Source: an uncultured delta proteobacterium
GTDB lineage: Bacteria; Myxococcota_A; Polyangia; Polyangiales; Polyangiaceae
NCBI GenBank assembly: GCA_903906315.1
Contig: CAIVJW010000219.1
Coordinates: forward strand, 1-64,000
DNA length: 64,000 nucleotides
Direction of reading: 5' to 3'
Part shown: positions 53,178 to 61,606 of the stretch, piece after piece
Layout of the letters: each line of letters starts with the position of its first letter
Position numbering within the stretch: the first letter of the stretch is position 1
Notes under the pieces: generated by a model
The model's database searches: none
What the model was told of the DNA's origin: nothing
What the model saw: the letters and a program-made list of their open reading frames with translations, nothing else
Position numbers and translations under genes: made by a program

Positions 53178-55019
53178 ATGACCATCGGCCGGAGACGAAA
53201 AGCCCTCATTTCTCCGGTCGAATCGATCCGAGCGCTGATCGCGATCGGCGCCCTCGCGGCCGCGACCGAGGCCGGCTGCGGGTCGACGATGACGACCACG
53301 TCCGCCGACGAGGGAGCCGGCGTCGGCGGCTACGACGGCAGCGCGTGCTCGGGCAGCCGCACGCGCTGCAGCGCCGCCTGCGTCGACCTCGCGAAGGACC
53401 ACGACAACTGCGGCGACTGCGGCCAGGCGTGCAAGGCAGGCGAGGCCTGCTCGGGCGGGGCGTGCGCCGTCTCGTGCGGCGGCGGCACGCTCGTTTGCGC
53501 CGACGGGTGCGTCGACGCGCTCCACGACCCGGCCCACTGCGGCGCGTGCGACAAGGCCTGCGGCGAGGGCGAGGTCTGCTCGCAAGGGTCCTGCGCGTTC
53601 ACCTGCGGCGGCGGCACGACCAAGTGCTCGGGGCCGTCGGGCGCGCTCTGCGTCGACCTCCTCCACGACCCGCACAGCTGCGGCGCGTGCGGCGCGGCCT
53701 GCGCGGCGGGCGAGGTCTGCGACGCGGGCGCGTGCGGCCTCTCCTGCGGCGGCGGCACGACGAAGTGCGGCGCGGCCTGCGTCGACCTCGCGTCGGACCC
53801 GGGCAACTGCGGGGCCTGCGGCACGGTCTGCGACGCGGGCGCCGGGCAGGTGTGCTCGGGCGCGACCTGCTCGGTCACCTGCGGCCCGGGCACGACGCTC
53901 TGCGGACCGGCGTGCATCGACCCGATGGTCGACCCCGGCAACTGCGGCGCGTGCGGCAAGGCCTGCGGCAAGGGGTCGGCGTGCGCGGGGGGCGCGTGCC
54001 TGCCGGCGTGCACCGGCGGCGCCGTGCTCTGCGGCGGATCCTGCAAGGACGTCGCGAACGACCCGAAGAACTGCGGCGGCTGCGGCGTCGCGTGCGCCGC
54101 CGGGGAGGTCTGCAGCGCGGCGACGTGCGGCGTCGTCTGCGGCGGCGGCACGACGAAATGCGGGGACGCCTGCGTCGCGCTCGGCAACGACCCGAAGAAC
54201 TGCGGCGCGTGCGGCGCCGCCTGCGACGCGGGCTACGCCTGCACGAACGGCGCGTGCGTGCTCGTGTGCGGCCTCGGCACCACCAACTGCGGCGGCGCGT
54301 GCGTCGACCTCCTCAACGACCCGACCCAGTGCGGTGCGTGCGGCGTGACCTGCCCGGCCGGCCAGGTCTGCAGCGCGGGGTCGTGCCAGCTCGTCTGCGG
54401 CGCCGGCACCGTGGCCTGCGGCGGGTCGTGCGTGAGCGTCGCCGACGACCCGCAGAACTGCGGCGCGTGCGGCGCGGCCTGCGCCGCCGGCGACGCCTGC
54501 GTCAGCGGCCAGTGCAAGGCGCTCGCGGCGTACTGGGCGGCCGGGGTGCAGACGGACGTGCCCGTCGCCAAGCTCGCCGGCTGGGCGCTCTGCCACCAGG
54601 ACACCTACGGCGCGGCCGGCACCTCGATTGGCAATCTCCTCGCGGGCTGCGACAAGGCGAAGATCCTCCTCGCGTGTCGCCCGACCGGCGCGGGCACGCT
54701 CACCGTGCTGGCGATGGCGCCCCGATCCGACGTCACCTTCGACACGGGCACCGACGACACCCCCCACGACGCGAACGGCGTCGGCTGGTACTTCTCGACC
54801 GACTGGTCCTGGGGCTTCGCGCCGCAGGGCGACGCCGTGACGCGCAGCTCGTGCGACACGACCGCGTCGAGCTTCGACGGCTTCGCCGGCGCCCACAAGG
54901 ATCAGCGCCTCTGCTGGCACACCGGCGGATCCTCGCTCGCGGTCGGCTGGCGCTGCGGCGCGACGGACAGCCTCAATGGCGACGTCGGCTGGGAGCGGCT
55001 GGTCTACCACTCGGATTGA
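53178..55019 (+). CDS. Exported protein with nine Cys-rich tandem repeats and a Trp-rich C-domain
   Basis: A 613-residue protein. The N-terminus (RALIAIGALAAATEAGC) is a signal peptide with a lipobox-like EAGC near residue 34. Residues 57-450 are nine repeats of about 43 residues, each with eight to ten cysteines in the pattern CGGGTTKCG..CVDL..DPxNCGACG..C..G..C..G.C, like a row of disulfide-bonded knots. Residues 465-613 form a separate domain with LAGWALCHQDTY and GWYFSTDWSWGFA, Trp/Tyr-rich and possibly carbohydrate-binding. It is probably a rod-like surface protein. ATG 53178. Its repeat unit is close to DUF4215-unrelated Cys-rich modules common in myxobacteria. Confidence 0.82.
   Translation: MTIGRRRKALISPVESIRALIAIGALAAATEAGCGSTMTTTSADEGAGVGGYDGSACSGSRTRCSAACVDLAKDHDNCGDCGQACKAGEACSGGACAVSCGGGTLVCADGCVDALHDPAHCGACDKACGEGEVCSQGSCAFTCGGGTTKCSGPSGALCVDLLHDPHSCGACGAACAAGEVCDAGACGLSCGGGTTKCGAACVDLASDPGNCGACGTVCDAGAGQVCSGATCSVTCGPGTTLCGPACIDPMVDPGNCGACGKACGKGSACAGGACLPACTGGAVLCGGSCKDVANDPKNCGGCGVACAAGEVCSAATCGVVCGGGTTKCGDACVALGNDPKNCGACGAACDAGYACTNGACVLVCGLGTTNCGGACVDLLNDPTQCGACGVTCPAGQVCSAGSCQLVCGAGTVACGGSCVSVADDPQNCGACGAACAAGDACVSGQCKALAAYWAAGVQTDVPVAKLAGWALCHQDTYGAAGTSIGNLLAGCDKAKILLACRPTGAGTLTVLAMAPRSDVTFDTGTDDTPHDANGVGWYFSTDWSWGFAPQGDAVTRSSCDTTASSFDGFAGAHKDQRLCWHTGGSSLAVGWRCGATDSLNGDVGWERLVYHSD
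53343..54528 (+). repeat. Nine tandem Cys-rich protein repeats (about 129 bp each)
   Basis: Nine in-frame units of about 129 bases, each encoding the CGGGTxxC...CVDL...NCGACG...C module. Nucleotide similarity is high between adjacent units, with repeated CAACTGCGGCGCGTGCGGC-like stretches, so recombination could change the copy number. Confidence 0.85.
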
Positions 55020-55134: not shown

Positions 55135-56613
55135 ATGCGCATCTGCATCCTGTCCTCCTCCTACCAGCACAGCACCGCTCCGTTTGCCGATCTCGACCCG
55201 CTGCCCGACCCGGCCCGCTACGCCCCCGATCACGACTGGGTCCATGAGCCGCTCCACAAGGCCACCTCGATTCCGCGCGTCCGCGCGCTCTCCCACCAGG
55301 GCTTCGACGTCTTCCTGAACCTGTGCGACGGCGCCTGGGACGAGGACCGCGCGGGCATCGAAGTGCCGCAGACGCTCGAGCGCCTCGGGCAGGCCTTCAC
55401 CGGCGCCGGCGCCTCGTTCTACGAGCCGAGCCGCGACGTGATGAAGCGAGTGTGCCACTACGCGGGCATCGAGACCCCGGGCTTCCTGTTCGCCGATCGC
55501 GCCGCCGACGCCGATCGCGCCGCCGACACGCTCCGATTCCCCATGATCGTGAAGCACCCGTCGAGCTACAACAGCGTCGGCATGCGCAGGGACGCCCGGT
55601 GCGAGACGCCCGCCGCGCTCCGCGAGCTCGTCCTGCGCAACGTCTCGGCGTACGGCGGCGCCCTCGTCGAGGAGTTCATCGAAGGCCGCGAGTTCACCGT
55701 CCTCGCGGCCGAGCCCGCCCCGGGCGAGCCCGAGCCGCGCGCGTACACGCCAGTCGAGTTCCTCTTCCCGCCCGGCGAGACGTTCAAGCACTTCGACCTC
55801 AAGTGGGTCGACTACCAGCGGATGTCGACCGAGCCCGTCGCCGACGAGGGCCTCGCCCGCCGCCTGCGCGAGGACTCGCGGCGCTTCTTCGCGGCGCTCG
55901 GCGGCACGGGCTACGGCCGCTGCGATCTGCGCATGGACGCGAGCGGGCGCCTCTTCATGCTCGAGATCAACCCCAACTGCTCGATCTTCTACCCGCCCGA
56001 CGCCTTCGGCAGCGCGGACCTCATCCTCGCGAGATCCCCGGGCAGACACCGGGGCTTCCTCGACCACCTCCTCGACTGCGCGCTGCGGCGGCGCGACGCG
56101 GCGCGGCCGACCACCGGAGTCCGGTACGACCCCGCACGCGGGTACGGCCTCGTCGCGCTCACCGCGCTGCCGGCGGGGGCCGTCGTCCAGGCAGGCGAGG
56201 AGCGCGCCCATCACCTCGTCACTCGTCGTCACGTCGACCGGCGCTGGGACGCCCAGAAGCAGCGCTGGTTCCGCCAGTACGCCTGGCCGCTCACCGACGA
56301 GGTCCACGCGATGTGGTCCGACCGCCCCGAGGACTGGCAGCCCATCAACCACGCCTGCGACCCGAGCTGCTGGCTCGACGGCCTCGCGCTCGTCACGCGC
56401 CGACCCGTCGCCGCCGGCGAGGCCCTCACAGTCGACTACGCCACGTTCTGCGGACCGGACACGGAGCCGTTCCCCTGCGACTGCCAGGCTCCGAGCTGCC
56501 GCGGCGTGATCCGCGGCAGCGACCACCTCTCCCCGGCGCTGGCCCCCTACGGCGATCACGTGAGCGACTACGTCCGACGCGCGCGGGCGGCGGCGGGGCT
56601 CGGCGGCGCGTGA
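55135..56613 (+). CDS. ATP-grasp ligase fused to a SET methyltransferase domain
   Basis: A 492-residue bifunctional protein. Residues 1-320 are a D-Ala-D-Ala-ligase-like ATP-grasp domain: NLCDGA (62-67), the ATP-lysine region MIVKHP (Lys140), VEEFIEGREFT (178-187) and RCDLRMDASG with LEINPN (Asp264, Glu277, Asn279, Asn281) for ATP and Mg2+. Residues 328-465 are a SET domain: GYGLVALTALPAG, INHACDPS (404-411), GEALTVDY (428-435) and a post-SET cluster Cys448-x-Cys450-x4-Cys455. An ATP-driven amide ligase and an AdoMet-dependent methyltransferase are therefore joined in one chain. ATG 55135 is chosen. The product is unknown; the next SET gene overlaps it by four bases. Confidence 0.9.
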   Translation: MRICILSSSYQHSTAPFADLDPLPDPARYAPDHDWVHEPLHKATSIPRVRALSHQGFDVFLNLCDGAWDEDRAGIEVPQTLERLGQAFTGAGASFYEPSRDVMKRVCHYAGIETPGFLFADRAADADRAADTLRFPMIVKHPSSYNSVGMRRDARCETPAALRELVLRNVSAYGGALVEEFIEGREFTVLAAEPAPGEPEPRAYTPVEFLFPPGETFKHFDLKWVDYQRMSTEPVADEGLARRLREDSRRFFAALGGTGYGRCDLRMDASGRLFMLEINPNCSIFYPPDAFGSADLILARSPGRHRGFLDHLLDCALRRRDAARPTTGVRYDPARGYGLVALTALPAGAVVQAGEERAHHLVTRRHVDRRWDAQKQRWFRQYAWPLTDEVHAMWSDRPEDWQPINHACDPSCWLDGLALVTRRPVAAGEALTVDYATFCGPDTEPFPCDCQAPSCRGVIRGSDHLSPALAPYGDHVSDYVRRARAAAGLGGA

Positions 56614-57182
56614 CGTCCGGCGAGGTCGGCCTCTCCCTGTCCGACGATCGCTTCGGGGTCCTCGCCGTCGGTCCGGACCACCGCCGCCTCTTCGTCCGCG
56701 TGGCCGTGGCCCGCGGCGAGGTGCTCGCGCCCTTCCGCGTGGCAGTTCGGGTCGGCGCGCCGCACCGCCACACGCTGCAGATAGCCGATCACGATCACGG
56801 GATCCTCGCGCCGCCGGAGCTCCGCTTCGTCGATCACCATTGCAGCCCGAGCGCCTTCTTCGACGTCGCCCTGCGCCAGTTGATTGCCCTGGTCGACCTC
56901 GCGCCGGGCGCGCCGGTCACGGCGTTCTACCCGGCTACCGAGTGGGCCATGGCCGAGCGCTTCGAGTGCCGCTGCGGCGCCCCGGGCTGCCTCGGCCTCG
57001 TCGGCGGCGCCTCGGAGCTTGCCCCGGACGTCCTCGCGCGCCACCGCCTGAGCCCCCACGTGGCGCGCCGGCTCGCCGCGCGGCTGAGCTCCACGGCTGT
57101 GACCGCGGCGACGGAGTCCGCCGAGGCGTGCGGCAAGGCCGACGAGAGCCCGGCGAACCGGGTGGAGGATCCCATCGGGTGA
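56610..57182 (+). CDS. Stand-alone SET-domain protein
   Basis: A 190-residue SET-domain protein. Motifs are FVDHHCSPS (73-81, in place of the usual NHxCxPN), GAPVTAFYPATEW (catalytic-Tyr candidate Tyr107) and the post-SET cluster Cys120-x-Cys122-x4-Cys127 in FECRCGAPGCLG. The N-terminal strand FGVLAVGPDHRRLFVRVAVARG replaces the usual SET-N half. GTG 56610 overlaps the ATP-grasp-SET stop (GTGA), so the two proteins are made together. Possible substrates are the product of the ligases or the ligases themselves; this is inference. The substitution of Asn by Asp/His in the motif may change activity. Confidence 0.8.
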   Translation: MTSGEVGLSLSDDRFGVLAVGPDHRRLFVRVAVARGEVLAPFRVAVRVGAPHRHTLQIADHDHGILAPPELRFVDHHCSPSAFFDVALRQLIALVDLAPGAPVTAFYPATEWAMAERFECRCGAPGCLGLVGGASELAPDVLARHRLSPHVARRLAARLSSTAVTAATESAEACGKADESPANRVEDPIG

Positions 57183-57329: not shown

Positions 57330-58499
57330 CTACAGCGGTCGCGCGGCGAGCTCCAGGCTGAGCTGGGCGGGCCTGGCCGGCGCCGAGGCGCGCGGTCGCC
57401 CGCGCCGCTGCGAGGGCCGCGCCGGCGCCTCGGCCGGGCCACCGCGGCGGCCGCGCCCATGGTCGAGGATGGCGCGGATCATCGTCGCGAACGGGATCCC
57501 CGAGAGTCGACAGATGTTGCCCGTGGACGAGTCGGCCGCCGTCCCGAGGCCGCAGTTCGCGTTCACCTCGAGGACGAGGAGCTCGCCGTCCTCGGCCTCG
57601 CGGAGGTCGACGCGCGCGTATCCATTGCCCCCGAGCGCCCGATAGGCCTTCTCGGCCAGCCGCGCGGCACGGCCCGCGGTCGCGCGGTCCGGTCGCCCGT
57701 AGAGGAAGAAGGGCTCGTCGCCGAGCTCCGGAATGCGCTGATCCGGAGAGTAGGTATCGTACACCTCGAAATGGAGGAACCGCTGCTCGGGCGGCAGCCG
57801 GGCGTTGTACGCCCGCTCGACCGGCGGAAAGGCCACCGGGGCGTGCGCCGGCCCGACGACCAGGACGGTGAGCTCGCGACCGTCGAGGAACGGCTCGACG
57901 AAGATGGCGCCGTGCGCGACGGACGGGTCGTGGCCCCCGCCCCGCAGCCACTCCACCTGCGCGCGGAGCTCGGCCGGCGTCTCCACCCTCGACCGGCAGT
58001 TGATTCCCAGGCTCGCGGCCGAGATCTCGGGCTTGACCATCAGCGGGAAGCCGATCGACTCCGCGTCGGCGACGTCCGCCGAGCCGCGAAGCTCGAGCCA
58101 CGCGGCGGTCGGGATCCGGCCGCGGCGCATCGCGCGCTTCATCCGCAGCTTCGAGGTCGAAAGCTCGTAGAACGCGGCGTCCGCGCCGGTGAAGTCGCGC
58201 CCCTGCGCCTCGAGCGCCCGCACCACCGAGAGGCCCGGGAACCCGTCGCCGTCGTCCTCGGCGCCGTCGCAGAGGTTCAGGAACAAAGTGCCCGGAGGGT
58301 GCGCCTCGAGCCGCCGCACGACGTGCCTCGGGTGCGCGGGGTCGAGCACGACGGGCTCCCAGACCCAGGGGAGGCCGAGGTCACGGAACCAGCCGCCGAC
58401 CTCCGCGCGAAACGCGGCCGAGCCGTACGAGGGGCTCTCGGGCCTGCCATCGATGAGCCGATAGGGCGCGATCACGACGACGGGGTCGGCCGGGATCAC
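57330..58499 (-). CDS. D-Ala-D-Ala ligase-like ATP-grasp enzyme (second of pair)
   Basis: A 389-residue ATP-grasp enzyme. Motifs: NLCDGA (75-80), VKPEISAASLGI with Lys156, FVEPFLDGRELT with Glu202, and ARVDLREAEDGELLVLEVNAN with Asp298, Glu311, Asn313 and Asn315 (shown here in parts). It lacks the large inserts of true Ddl but keeps its full metal/ATP apparatus, so it should join a carboxylate to an amine or hydroxyl group through an acyl phosphate. The last 35 residues are Arg/Pro/Ala-rich. GTG 58499 overlaps the stop of the preceding ligase (GTGA). It converges with the SET gene. Confidence 0.88.
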   Translation of the reverse strand: MIPADPVVVIAPYRLIDGRPESPSYGSAAFRAEVGGWFRDLGLPWVWEPVVLDPAHPRHVVRRLEAHPPGTLFLNLCDGAEDDGDGFPGLSVVRALEAQGRDFTGADAAFYELSTSKLRMKRAMRRGRIPTAAWLELRGSADVADAESIGFPLMVKPEISAASLGINCRSRVETPAELRAQVEWLRGGGHDPSVAHGAIFVEPFLDGRELTVLVVGPAHAPVAFPPVERAYNARLPPEQRFLHFEVYDTYSPDQRIPELGDEPFFLYGRPDRATAGRAARLAEKAYRALGGNGYARVDLREAEDGELLVLEVNANCGLGTAADSSTGNICRLSGIPFATMIRAILDHGRGRRGGPAEAPARPSQRRGRPRASAPARPAQLSLELAARPL

Positions 58500-59587
58500 G
58501 AGACCCCCGCGCGCGCGCGGCGCCGCGCCGTGGCGAGGATGCGGTCGATGACGGCGCCCATCGTGTCCACGTGGGTGCGCAGGATCTGGCCGGTGTAGCT
58601 CCCGCCGTCGAACGAGAGCCCGCAGTTCGCGTTCACCTCGAGCACGAAGAGCTCGCCTGTCGCCGCGTCCTCGCGCAGGTCGACGCGGGCGTAGCCGGTG
58701 CCGGACACCGCCCGGAAGGCGCCCGCCGCGATCGGCTCGATCCGACGCTGCACCTCGGGCGACACCTTGCCAATCGCGCAGTACTCCGAGCCGGCGGGAG
58801 GCGGCGACTCCTCGTCGAACTCCTCGAGGTAGCGCTCGTGCGTGAGGAAGCGCTCCTCGGGCGGGAGCGCCGGGTGGAACAGGCGCTCGGCGGCGGTGAA
58901 CACCTCGGGGGCGCCCGGGCGATCGAAGACGAACGCGGTGTACTCGGGGCCGGCGACGAACCGCTCGACGAACCAGCCGCCGGCGCGGCCCGGGTGGCGC
59001 TGATCGAGCCTCCGCCACTCGGCATCCAGCGCGTCGACGCCGTCCACGCGCGAGCGGAGCCCGATCCCGAGGCTGGCCGCGGAGACGTCGGGCTTGATGA
59101 TCAGCGGGAAGCCGAGGCGACCGCAGTGTTCGAGGACCTCGCGCGGATCGCCCTCGAGCGCGCGGAACGCCGCCGTCGGAATGCCCGCGTCGACGAACCG
59201 GGCCTTCATCGCGAGCTTCGAGGTCGACAGTCGGTAGAACCCCCCGTCGGCGCCCGTGAACGCGACGCCGGCCGCCTCGAGCGCGAGGACGACCGAGAGC
59301 CCGGGGATCCCGTCGTCCTCGGCGCCGTCGCAGAGGTTGAACGCAATGGTGTCGCGCGCCCGGGCGAGCTCGCCGAGGCGCGCGACGACGCTCGGGATGC
59401 GCGTCTCGGCGGGACCTTCGAGGCAGACCGGCTGCCAGACCCAGTCGCACCCGATCGGCTCGAACCACTCCGGCACCTCCGCGCGGAACGCGGGGTAGTC
59501 GTACTCGGAGCTCGAGAGGCGGTCGTCCTTCCAGGCGTACGGGACGAGGACGACGACGAGCGGTCGTCCGCCGTGAGACGTGGGCAC
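58496..59587 (-). CDS. D-Ala-D-Ala ligase-like ATP-grasp enzyme (first of pair)
   Basis: A 363-residue ATP-grasp enzyme, paralogous to its neighbour. Motifs: NLCDGA (84-89), PLIIKPDVSAASLGI with Lys165, WFVERFVAG with Glu208, and RVDLRED...LFVLEVNANCG with Asp303, Glu317, Asn319 and Asn321. GTG 59587 has GAGG nine bases upstream and is followed by a frame in step with the preceding motif, so the longer upstream frame is rejected. It leads a two-gene operon opposite the ATP-grasp-SET pair. Substrates are unknown; a dipeptide-like product or a peptide chain is plausible. Confidence 0.88.
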   Translation of the reverse strand: MPTSHGGRPLVVVLVPYAWKDDRLSSSEYDYPAFRAEVPEWFEPIGCDWVWQPVCLEGPAETRIPSVVARLGELARARDTIAFNLCDGAEDDGIPGLSVVLALEAAGVAFTGADGGFYRLSTSKLAMKARFVDAGIPTAAFRALEGDPREVLEHCGRLGFPLIIKPDVSAASLGIGLRSRVDGVDALDAEWRRLDQRHPGRAGGWFVERFVAGPEYTAFVFDRPGAPEVFTAAERLFHPALPPEERFLTHERYLEEFDEESPPPAGSEYCAIGKVSPEVQRRIEPIAAGAFRAVSGTGYARVDLREDAATGELFVLEVNANCGLSFDGGSYTGQILRTHVDTMGAVIDRILATARRRARAGVS

Positions 59588-59980: not shown

Positions 59981-61606
59981 GTGACCAATCTGCTGCGACC
60001 GAGCTCCCTCGCCCTGCTCCTCACGACCCTCGCCGCCGGCGTGGGCTGCGGCTCCGCCGACGACGGCTCGGGCACGACGCCGCAGACGGGTGACGAGGAC
60101 GACCTCACCAGCGTGACCGCGCGCGAGCGCGCCCTCACGTTCGACGGCTACGTCTACCTGCCGACGACGGCGACCGACTCGACCATCCTGGCGGCCGTCA
60201 AGCGCCAGAACAAGTCGGCCTTCGGCGCCCTGCGCAACGCCGAGATCAGCGCGAACAACCGCGAGCTCGCCGAGATCGACGCCAAGGCGTTCGTCAAGGA
60301 GACGGTCTCGGTCGTCGACCCGTCGAACCCGGCCGCGGCGAAGAAGCCGATGCTCCGCGTGCGCTACCGCTACACCGACCGCGCGCTCGTGCCGGTCTCG
60401 ATGGCCAAGCGCAGCGCCGTCGGCATGGCCGTCCTCCACGGCGACTACCAGGCGCAGAGCAAGCGCATCCTGCAGGAGTGCACCGAGAACTCGGCCCACG
60501 ACCAGGAGTTCGAGGGATCCATCTGGTACGTGTTCAACCCGACGCTCTCCGGCTGCCAGGAGGCGATGTCCGCCGAGCAGCAGAAGATCGACGAGGCGCG
60601 CGCCAAGCTCGCGAACCCGGACACCGAGGTCGTCGCGGCCGAGACGACGCGCCTCTACCTCCCGATCACCGCGAAGCTCGAGTCGACCAAGACGTCGACC
60701 GCGAAGACCTACCCCGAGTACGACCGCCTCTGGAGCGGCGGCGTGGAGGCCGGCAAGCTCAAGGTCGCCATCGTGTCGGGCGTGATGGCCGACTGGGCCG
60801 CCGGCGACAAGCCGGAGCTAGCCAACGACATCGGCTACCACATGTTCTACCAGATGGTCGACGAGATCGGCCGCGTGGTGCCGGGCCTGCAGCTCACGGG
60901 CACGGACGGCGCCGACCTCACGACCTTCACCGTGAACGGCAAGACCGTGAAGGGCGTGACCTGGGCCGACCTGACGAAGTGGGAGCTCTCGGGATCGGGC
61001 TGGCCCGCTGAGATCGCGTCGGCGGCCGACCGCGACGCGCTCAAGAAGCTCGTCGCCAACACCATGGCGCACCACTGGATCACCTTCGAGCGCAAGGCGA
61101 GCGTGAAGCTCGGCACCGACGCGGCGAAGGACGTCACCGTCGTCATCAACACGTACTACGGCGCCGAGACGGACGACGCGCCGCACCGCAAGGCGCTCTC
61201 GTCGAACGACGTGGTCGTCTACAACGGCCACTCGTACATCGGCTGGGGCCCGCTCGACCCGAGCCGCTACTCCGCCTCGACCTTCCCGAAGTCGTACCAG
61301 CTGTTCTTCTTCAACAGCTGCGTGTCCTTCAACTACTACGAGAAGGACTTCTTCAAGATGAAGGGCGGCACCGAGAACCTCGACATGATCACGAACGGCC
61401 TCGAGAGCCCCGTCTACGGGTCCGGGCCGGTCGTCGGCCGCATGGTCGGCGCGATCGTGTCGGGCAAGGCGGTCTCGTACAAGGACATCCTCGTCAAGGG
61501 CGCGCAGTACACCGAGCACGGCCAGGACGCGCTCCGCGTCGTCGACGGCGAGCTCGACAACACCTACAAGCCGTCGAAGAAGGCGCTCACCGTCACGTTC
61601 AAGTGA
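59981..61606 (+). CDS. Lipoprotein with putative caspase/gingipain-like His-Cys dyad
   Basis: A 541-residue lipoprotein; lipobox GVGC near Cys23. Residues 40-250 are a helical/beta region. In the C-terminal half, VVVYNGHSYIGWG (His417) and LFFFNSCVSFNYYEKDFF (Cys447) form the His-then-Cys pair in the position expected for caspase-fold (CD clan) peptidases such as C25 gingipain and C14. The segment between holds DPSRY and no other motif. This is only a motif-level resemblance. GTG 59981 has GGAGG five bases upstream. It would act outside the cell. It is adjacent to the ATP-grasp/SET locus but need not be linked. Confidence 0.72.
   Translation: MTNLLRPSSLALLLTTLAAGVGCGSADDGSGTTPQTGDEDDLTSVTARERALTFDGYVYLPTTATDSTILAAVKRQNKSAFGALRNAEISANNRELAEIDAKAFVKETVSVVDPSNPAAAKKPMLRVRYRYTDRALVPVSMAKRSAVGMAVLHGDYQAQSKRILQECTENSAHDQEFEGSIWYVFNPTLSGCQEAMSAEQQKIDEARAKLANPDTEVVAAETTRLYLPITAKLESTKTSTAKTYPEYDRLWSGGVEAGKLKVAIVSGVMADWAAGDKPELANDIGYHMFYQMVDEIGRVVPGLQLTGTDGADLTTFTVNGKTVKGVTWADLTKWELSGSGWPAEIASAADRDALKKLVANTMAHHWITFERKASVKLGTDAAKDVTVVINTYYGAETDDAPHRKALSSNDVVVYNGHSYIGWGPLDPSRYSASTFPKSYQLFFFNSCVSFNYYEKDFFKMKGGTENLDMITNGLESPVYGSGPVVGRMVGAIVSGKAVSYKDILVKGAQYTEHGQDALRVVDGELDNTYKPSKKALTVTFK

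What the first reader, a model, noticed from the sequence alone, without database searches (positions are those of the whole stretch)
55135..56613. Single chain joining an amide ligase to a SET methyltransferase
Residues 1-320 carry a Ddl-like ATP-grasp with Lys140, Asp264, Glu277 and Asn279; residues 328-465 carry SET motifs NHACDPS, GEALTVDY and a CxCx4C. The join has no frameshift or internal stop. A ligase-methyltransferase fusion suggests substrate hand-over, for example a Lys-containing acceptor ligated and then methylated. The start and end motifs are intact, so this is not a chimera of fragments.
Basis: partly seen in the sequence, partly recalled or inferred. Interest (0 to 1): 0.8.

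Follow-up and report, generated by a model that had tools for sequence, protein, structure and literature searches.

The report
ATP-grasp ligase fused to SET methyltransferase
A myxobacterial gene really does join an amide-bond-forming enzyme and a methyl-transferring enzyme in one protein; the same fusion is conserved in at least ten bacterial phyla, often beside a second methyltransferase, extra ligases and an exporter, so it is probably the core of an undescribed small-molecule pathway rather than a histone-type protein methyltransferase.

Summary
Window 55135-56613(+) encodes one 492-aa chain: a D-Ala-D-Ala-ligase-fold ATP-grasp (1-324) joined to a SET domain (328-465). It is neither a chimera nor a sequencing error. 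I found 52 non-redundant fusions in at least 10 phyla. The SET domains form one clade (100/97), the two halves co-diverge (Mantel 0.74, 0/2000 permutations), and the junction is 18 residues in 43 of 48. The ATP/Mg residues are near-invariant; SET His406, Cys408 and the zinc cysteines are invariant, and Tyr435 is kept in 92%. AlphaFold2 gives pLDDT 94, pTM 0.89.

A second SET gene (56610-57182, overlapping GTGA) is the detached third domain of a 640-aa ATP-grasp-SET-SET chain in relatives. Two divergent ATP-grasp paralogues follow. In Bacteroidota and Alphaproteobacteria the same parts sit together with an ABC transporter; Gemmatimonadota keep ligase plus fusion.

The second SET is closest to BurB, which S-methylates free methionine, not to histone methyltransferases. 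The best reading is therefore a small-molecule pathway: amino-acid-type building blocks methylated and amide-ligated, product probably exported. The Lys-acceptor idea is unsupported; substrates are unknown. I found no published description in the open-access library searched.

The parts
55135..56613 (+). ATP-grasp-SET fusion gene (A1-SET1), 492 aa
   Evidence: single ORF; Pfam PF07478 + PF00856; AF2 pLDDT 94.2, pTM 0.89; 52 fused homologues
55135..56106 (+). Ddl-fold ATP-grasp domain, residues 1-324; ATP/Mg residues K104, K140, E179, E186, R262, D264, E277, N279
   Evidence: VIA-align Z 31.0, rmsd 2.4 A over 296 residues to S. aureus Ddl 7u9k; residues 96-100% conserved
56116..56529 (+). SET1 domain, residues 328-465; H406, C408, Y435 and post-SET C448/C450/C455
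   Evidence: PF00856 above cut-off; H406, C408 and the three Cys 52/52, Y435 48/52; clade support 100/97
56610..57182 (+). SET2 gene, 190 aa, GTG start overlapping the fusion's TGA; BurB-like SET with HTLQI and YPATEW motifs
   Evidence: PDB profile search top hit BurB 3.6e-26; Foldseek/VIA top hit BurB, Z 14.8 vs 11.4 for the next entry; equals the third domain of 640-aa homologues
57330..58499 (-). ATP-grasp paralogue A2, 389 aa
   Evidence: PF07478 5e-17 (scanned as 57333-58496); same family as the ligase beside the fusion in Bacteroidota and Gemmatimonadota
58496..59587 (-). ATP-grasp paralogue A3, 363 aa, overlapping A2 by 4 bases
   Evidence: PF07478 9.8e-12 (scanned as 58499-59500); 47% identical to A2; family found in only 3 of 377 Myxococcota genomes at E<=1e-40

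Best explanation
The gene encodes a bifunctional biosynthetic enzyme. The Ddl-fold ATP-grasp half activates a carboxylate as acyl phosphate and joins it to an amine (fold and ATP/Mg residues shown; ligation inferred). The SET half transfers a methyl group from S-adenosylmethionine (fold and cofactor-site residues shown; activity inferred). With SET2, a BurB-like SET enzyme, and the two neighbouring ATP-grasp ligases it forms a compact pathway that builds a small methylated amide from amino-acid-type units, which in other lineages is probably exported by an adjacent ABC or MFS transporter. S-methylmethionine made by SET2 as a building block is the most specific version and only a hypothesis.
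For: Single-ORF fusion in 52 non-redundant proteins from at least 10 phyla. Cofactor-site residues of both halves conserved. One origin and co-divergence: SET1 clade 100/97, Mantel r 0.736 with 0/2000 permutations, constant 18-aa junction in 43/48. Recurrent partners: SET2 and A2/A3-type ligase directly upstream of the fusion in ten Bacteroidota loci, an ABC_membrane_3 gene just downstream in most, ABC exporters in Alphaproteobacteria (L103, L106, L108), an MFS gene in Solirubrobacterales (L060, L063). SET1 and SET2 are parts of one 640-aa chain in L037, L038, L039, L042, L053, L065. SET2 closest to BurB by sequence and fold; one SET2-clade gene (L186) lies beside a PLP decarboxylase, as burB pairs with the decarboxylase BurI in DMSP synthesis (PMC7496086). 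Control: an ordinary bacterial SET (L033) finds MLL1 first and BurB is not in its top 60.
Against: No substrate, product or activity is shown. SET1's affinity to BurB is weak (profile 6.8e-16 versus 3.2e-15 for MLL1; single sequence 2.1e-7 versus 3.2e-5), and in the tree SET1 sits nearer to other uncharacterised bacterial SETs than to BurB. SET2-BurB grouping has only 96/70 support. Many fusions in Myxococcota, including close relatives, have no SET2, ligase or exporter beside them, and no exporter was recognised beside the window cassette among the genes scanned.
Confidence: 0.55

Rival explanations
1. Protein-modifying enzyme: the ATP-grasp half adds an amino acid to a protein or peptide, as tubulin-tyrosine-ligase-like enzymes do, and the SET half methylates a lysine of that target.
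For: The best-known SET domains methylate protein lysines; human TTLL12 also combines a SET-like and an ATP-grasp ligase domain (PMC3520985); SET1's profile score for MLL1 is close to its score for BurB; many fusion genes are solitary.
Against: The ATP-grasp half is of D-Ala-D-Ala-ligase type, an amino-acid ligase fold; SET2 is BurB-like; exporters are recurrent neighbours.
Confidence: 0.2
2. Biosynthesis or modification of a ribosomal peptide (graspetide-like), with the ligase closing amide links and SET methylating side chains.
For: ATP-grasp plus ABC transporter plus tailoring methyltransferase is a usual graspetide layout (general knowledge; PMC8939145 was only listed, not read).
Against: No conserved small ORF within 1.5 kb of 17 cassettes; the only recurring ones were minus-strand ORFs shared by pairs of loci. 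The ATP-grasp is Ddl-like over its whole length.
Confidence: 0.07
3. The fusion is a degenerate pairing: the ligase works, while SET is retained for structure or binding.
For: Tyr435 is His in 3 and Phe in 1 of 52 proteins; about 28 orthologues lack SET altogether, so SET is dispensable for the ligase. In BurB Tyr124Phe keeps over 60% of its activity (PMC12542666), so that Tyr is no firm marker.
Against: His406, Cys408 and three Cys are invariant in 52 proteins and Tyr435 is kept in 48 of 52, which a purely structural relic would not need.
Confidence: 0.12

Closest known systems
D-alanine-D-alanine ligase (Ddl, PF07478)
   Same: Fold over residues 1-324 (Z 31, rmsd 2.4 A, 19-24% identity), ATP and Mg residues conserved.
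   Different: Scores 66 against a curated cut-off of 243; the Gly-Met-Thr-x-x-Ser type segment after the Mg-binding Asn (Ddl side from general knowledge) is replaced by NCSIFYPPDAFGSADLI, so the second substrate is probably not D-Ala; carries a C-terminal SET.
BurB / MSMT, SET-domain methionine S-methyltransferase (9l4t, 9l4v)
   Same: SET2 (and, weakly, SET1) match it first among solved structures; SET2 shares the HTLQI and Y-x-x-TE segments around the substrate pocket.
   Different: BurB is a single-domain enzyme paired with a decarboxylase (PMC7496086); none of the neighbours scanned here is one, and ATP-grasp ligases are present instead. Substrate untested.
TTLL12 (eukaryotic SET-like plus TTL ATP-grasp protein)
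   Same: Also one chain with a SET-like and an ATP-grasp ligase domain (PMC3520985).
   Different: Opposite domain order, different ATP-grasp family, SET most like SETD3/4/6, and it lacks critical residues; here both active sites are conserved. I take it as convergent.
L-amino-acid and dipeptide ligases of the ATP-grasp class (BacD, RizA type)
   Same: Would work alike: ATP-grasp joining free amino acids in small peptides (general knowledge).
   Different: No direct sequence comparison made; I know of no SET domain in that group.

Membership tests
D-alanine-D-alanine ligase | Ddl / ATP-grasp fold | tested here: met
   VIA-align Z 31.0 to 7u9k, 296 residues aligned; PF07478 above cut-off
D-alanine-D-alanine ligase | ATP- and Mg-binding Lys/Glu/Arg/Asp/Glu/Asn | tested here: met
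   K104, K140, E179, E186, R262, D264, E277, N279 conserved in 96-100% of 52 fusions
D-alanine-D-alanine ligase | Curated Ddl model score | tested here: not met
   66.1 bits versus 243 (NF002378) and 60.4 versus 245.65 (TIGR01205)
D-alanine-D-alanine ligase | Ligation of D-Ala to D-Ala | not testable with these tools
   needs enzymology
SET-domain methyltransferase superfamily | SET domain over curated cut-off | tested here: met
   PF00856 32.2 bits versus 22.4
SET-domain methyltransferase superfamily | NHxC motif, catalytic-position Tyr, post-SET Cys | tested here: met
   H406 and C408 100%, Y435 92%, C448/C450/C455 100% in 52 proteins; N405 in 37 of 52
BurB-type methionine S-methyltransferase (SET2) | Closest relationship to BurB rather than to histone methyltransferases | tested here: met
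   3.6e-26 versus 1.4e-10; Z 14.8 versus 11.4; tree 96/70; control SET behaves otherwise
BurB-type methionine S-methyltransferase (SET2) | Genomic pairing with an S-methylmethionine decarboxylase | tested here: not met
   none among the scanned genes between 52667 and 62609; seen only with other SETs such as L186, L192, L194
BurB-type methionine S-methyltransferase (SET2) | S-methylation of methionine | not testable with these tools
   needs enzymology
BurB-type methionine S-methyltransferase (SET1) | Closest relationship to BurB | tested here: inconclusive
   best SET hit in PDB but margin over MLL1 small; separate clade in the tree
Histone/protein lysine methyltransferase | Lysine N-methylation of protein | not testable with these tools
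   no substrate information
Graspetide system | Conserved precursor peptide next to the ATP-grasp gene | tested here: not met
   no conserved small ORF within 1.5 kb of 17 cassettes of related loci
Known anti-phage defence system | Match to a PADLOC model | tested here: not met
   no match for the fusion, SET2, A2, A3 or the 59981 gene

The most novel reading that the evidence does not exclude
An undescribed, widely shared pathway class in which Ddl-type ATP-grasp ligases and two SET methyltransferases, at least one of them BurB-related, in one or two chains, make and export small sulfonium- or N-methyl-bearing peptides, with SET domains as standard tailoring enzymes of bacterial small-molecule assembly.
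Probability: 0.3. Interest if true: 0.82.

Novelty: new variant of a known kind. Interest (0 to 1): 0.62.

Why it matters
SET domains are thought of as protein (histone) methylating enzymes; [quoted passage not shown] This fusion puts a SET domain in the same chain as an amide ligase across at least ten phyla, with a BurB-like SET, more ligases and transporters as repeated neighbours. If the small-molecule reading holds, it opens a family of uncharacterised metabolites, shows the fusion is an old and stable two-step catalyst, and warns that 'protein-lysine N-methyltransferase' labels on bacterial SET genes may often be wrong.

Tried and rejected
Frameshift, assembly error or chimera: rejected, many independent single-ORF homologues. 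Recurrent independent fusion: rejected for SET1 (one clade, constant junction, co-divergence). Ligase-only forms as the ancestral state: disfavoured, because fused forms lie on both sides of the deepest A1 split and about 10 changes suffice (quick tree; branch support moderate). Ribosomal precursor peptide: none found. Anti-phage defence: no PADLOC match. A Streptomyces plasmid SET hit (L201) gave no useful context. Literature: searches combining ATP-grasp, SET domain, D-Ala-D-Ala ligase, gene cluster and ABC transporter returned no description of this fusion; a review of bacterial SET proteins has no mention of ligase or ATP-grasp. The library is open-access only, so an earlier description elsewhere, for instance in the 2009 amidoligase survey of Iyer and Aravind (from memory, not checked), cannot be excluded.

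Full report
What is there. Window 55135-56613(+) is one open frame of 492 codons, called as one gene by a codon-usage finder. Pfam finds Dala_Dala_lig_C at residues 127-280 and SET at 336-435, both above cut-off. The next gene starts within the fusion's last codons (GTG at 56610 overlapping TGA at 56611-56613) and encodes a 190-aa protein, SET2. It has no Pfam match at E<=1 on its own, but its homologues do. Then come two ATP-grasp genes on the other strand, 57330-58499 and 58496-59587, overlapping by four bases and 47% identical to each other.

Is the fusion real. Searches of related genomes and of the GTDB genome collection gave the same architecture many times. After gene calling and removal of near-copies there are 52 fused proteins. 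Record titles place them in Myxococcota, Chloroflexota, Acidobacteriota, Planctomycetota, Gemmatimonadota, Bacteroidota, Pseudomonadota, Actinomycetota, Zixiibacteriota and Methylomirabilota. Most are metagenome-assembled, but one lies on a single 11.4-Mb contig (G031). In a 377-genome sample of the phylum, 11 genomes have the fusion at E<1e-150, so it is uncommon there.

How old is the join. The SET1 domains form one clade (100/97). Distances between ATP-grasp halves track distances between SET halves (Spearman 0.736, none of 2000 permutations as high; 0.377 and again 0/2000 without the deepest clade). The stretch between the last ligase helix and the SET core is 18 residues in 43 of 48. Ligase-only orthologues are scattered inside the fused tree (10 changes), so loss of SET is the simpler account. 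In several relatives (L037, L038, L039, L042, L053, L065) the chain goes on into a second SET, about 640 aa in all; the window's SET2 gene groups with those third domains (86/83 with L039). The window therefore appears to hold a split form of a three-domain enzyme.

Are both halves competent. In 52 fusions K104, K140, S147, E179, E186, R262, D264, E277 and N279 of the ligase are 96-100% conserved. In SET1 H406, C408, C448, C450 and C455 are invariant, and Tyr435 is kept in 48 of 52. The AlphaFold2 model is confident across both domains (pLDDT 94.2, pTM 0.89). The ligase half superposes on D-Ala-D-Ala ligases (Z 31, 2.4 A over 296 residues). It is not a true Ddl: it scores 66 bits against a cut-off of 243, and the segment after the Mg-binding Asn differs.

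What the SET domains resemble. The SET2 profile finds BurB first among all solved structures (3.6e-26; next, MLL1, 1.4e-10). The SET2 model gives the same order (Foldseek; VIA Z 14.8 against 11.4 for ASH1L). BurB converts free methionine to S-methylmethionine; its Tyr124Phe mutant keeps over 60% activity (PMC12542666; PMC7496086). As a control, an ordinary bacterial SET from a related genome (L033) finds MLL1 first (4.5e-24) with no BurB among its best 60. Related SET genes in Myxococcota (L186, L192, L194) lie next to ornithine/diaminopimelate-type decarboxylases, the pairing seen for burB and the decarboxylase burI; L192 is a close BurB homologue (2e-49). For SET1 itself BurB is also the best SET hit, but the margin over MLL1 is small and the tree does not join them.

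Context elsewhere. In ten Bacteroidota loci the order is SET2, A2/A3-type ligase, fusion, in most followed by an ABC_membrane_3 gene. Alphaproteobacteria have SET2, ABC exporter, two ligases, fusion (L108), or exporter, SET2, fusion (L106), or exporter, ligase, A1 cut by the contig end (L103). Gemmatimonadota have ligase plus fusion (L074, L076, L078). Solirubrobacterales have SET, fusion, MFS gene. An exporter 39% identical to that of L108 also lies beside a SET2-like gene in L187. The A3-type ligase is rare in Myxococcota (3 of 377 genomes). No conserved small ORF accompanies 17 cassettes.

Mechanism. Shown: architecture, conservation, fold, linkage. Inferred: the ligase makes an acyl phosphate from one amino-acid-type substrate and condenses it with another; SET1 and SET2 methylate substrate or product from AdoMet; a transporter exports the product where one is present. 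The order of steps, the identity of the amino acids and direct hand-over between sites are not known. Methionine S-methylation by SET2 is the most specific testable guess. A lysine acceptor has no support here.

Novelty. I found no paper describing the fusion in the library held. TTLL12 combines similar domains in eukaryotes with another order and lost residues. I rate it a new variant of a known kind, a small-molecule ligase with methyltransferase tailoring, with the unusual feature that the methyltransferase is a SET domain.

Noticed in passing
L192:6566-8332, L194:4682-6463, L186:1731-3443: SET genes directly beside PLP decarboxylases in Myxococcota genomes; L192 is a close BurB homologue (2e-49), so burB-burI-like DMSP-route gene pairs seem to occur in this phylum.
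   Followed up: partly
L112:6869-9901 (also L113, L114, L115; L089:5539-7806): Ddl-like ATP-grasp genes next to a lysine 2,3-aminomutase-type radical SAM gene; in L112-L115 a tandem ATP-grasp pair follows it. Suggests beta-amino-acid peptide pathways.
   Followed up: partly
L030:8666-13612, L031:626-5438, L032:5699-10288: About 700-aa proteins with two ATP-grasp domains repeatedly lie head to head with a UvrD-type helicase in the window's family.
   Followed up: no
L053:6455-10358 (same in L092): Acidobacterial array of small SET, ATP-grasp-SET, ATP-grasp-SET-SET and small SET genes in tandem.
   Followed up: no
window 53178-55019: Cys-rich protein with nine stretches matching the plant STIG1 family (PF04885, 1.4e-41), immediately upstream of the fusion.
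   Followed up: no
window 59981-61606: 541-aa putative lipoprotein with no Pfam, NCBIfam or PADLOC match, divergent from the ligase pair.
   Followed up: no
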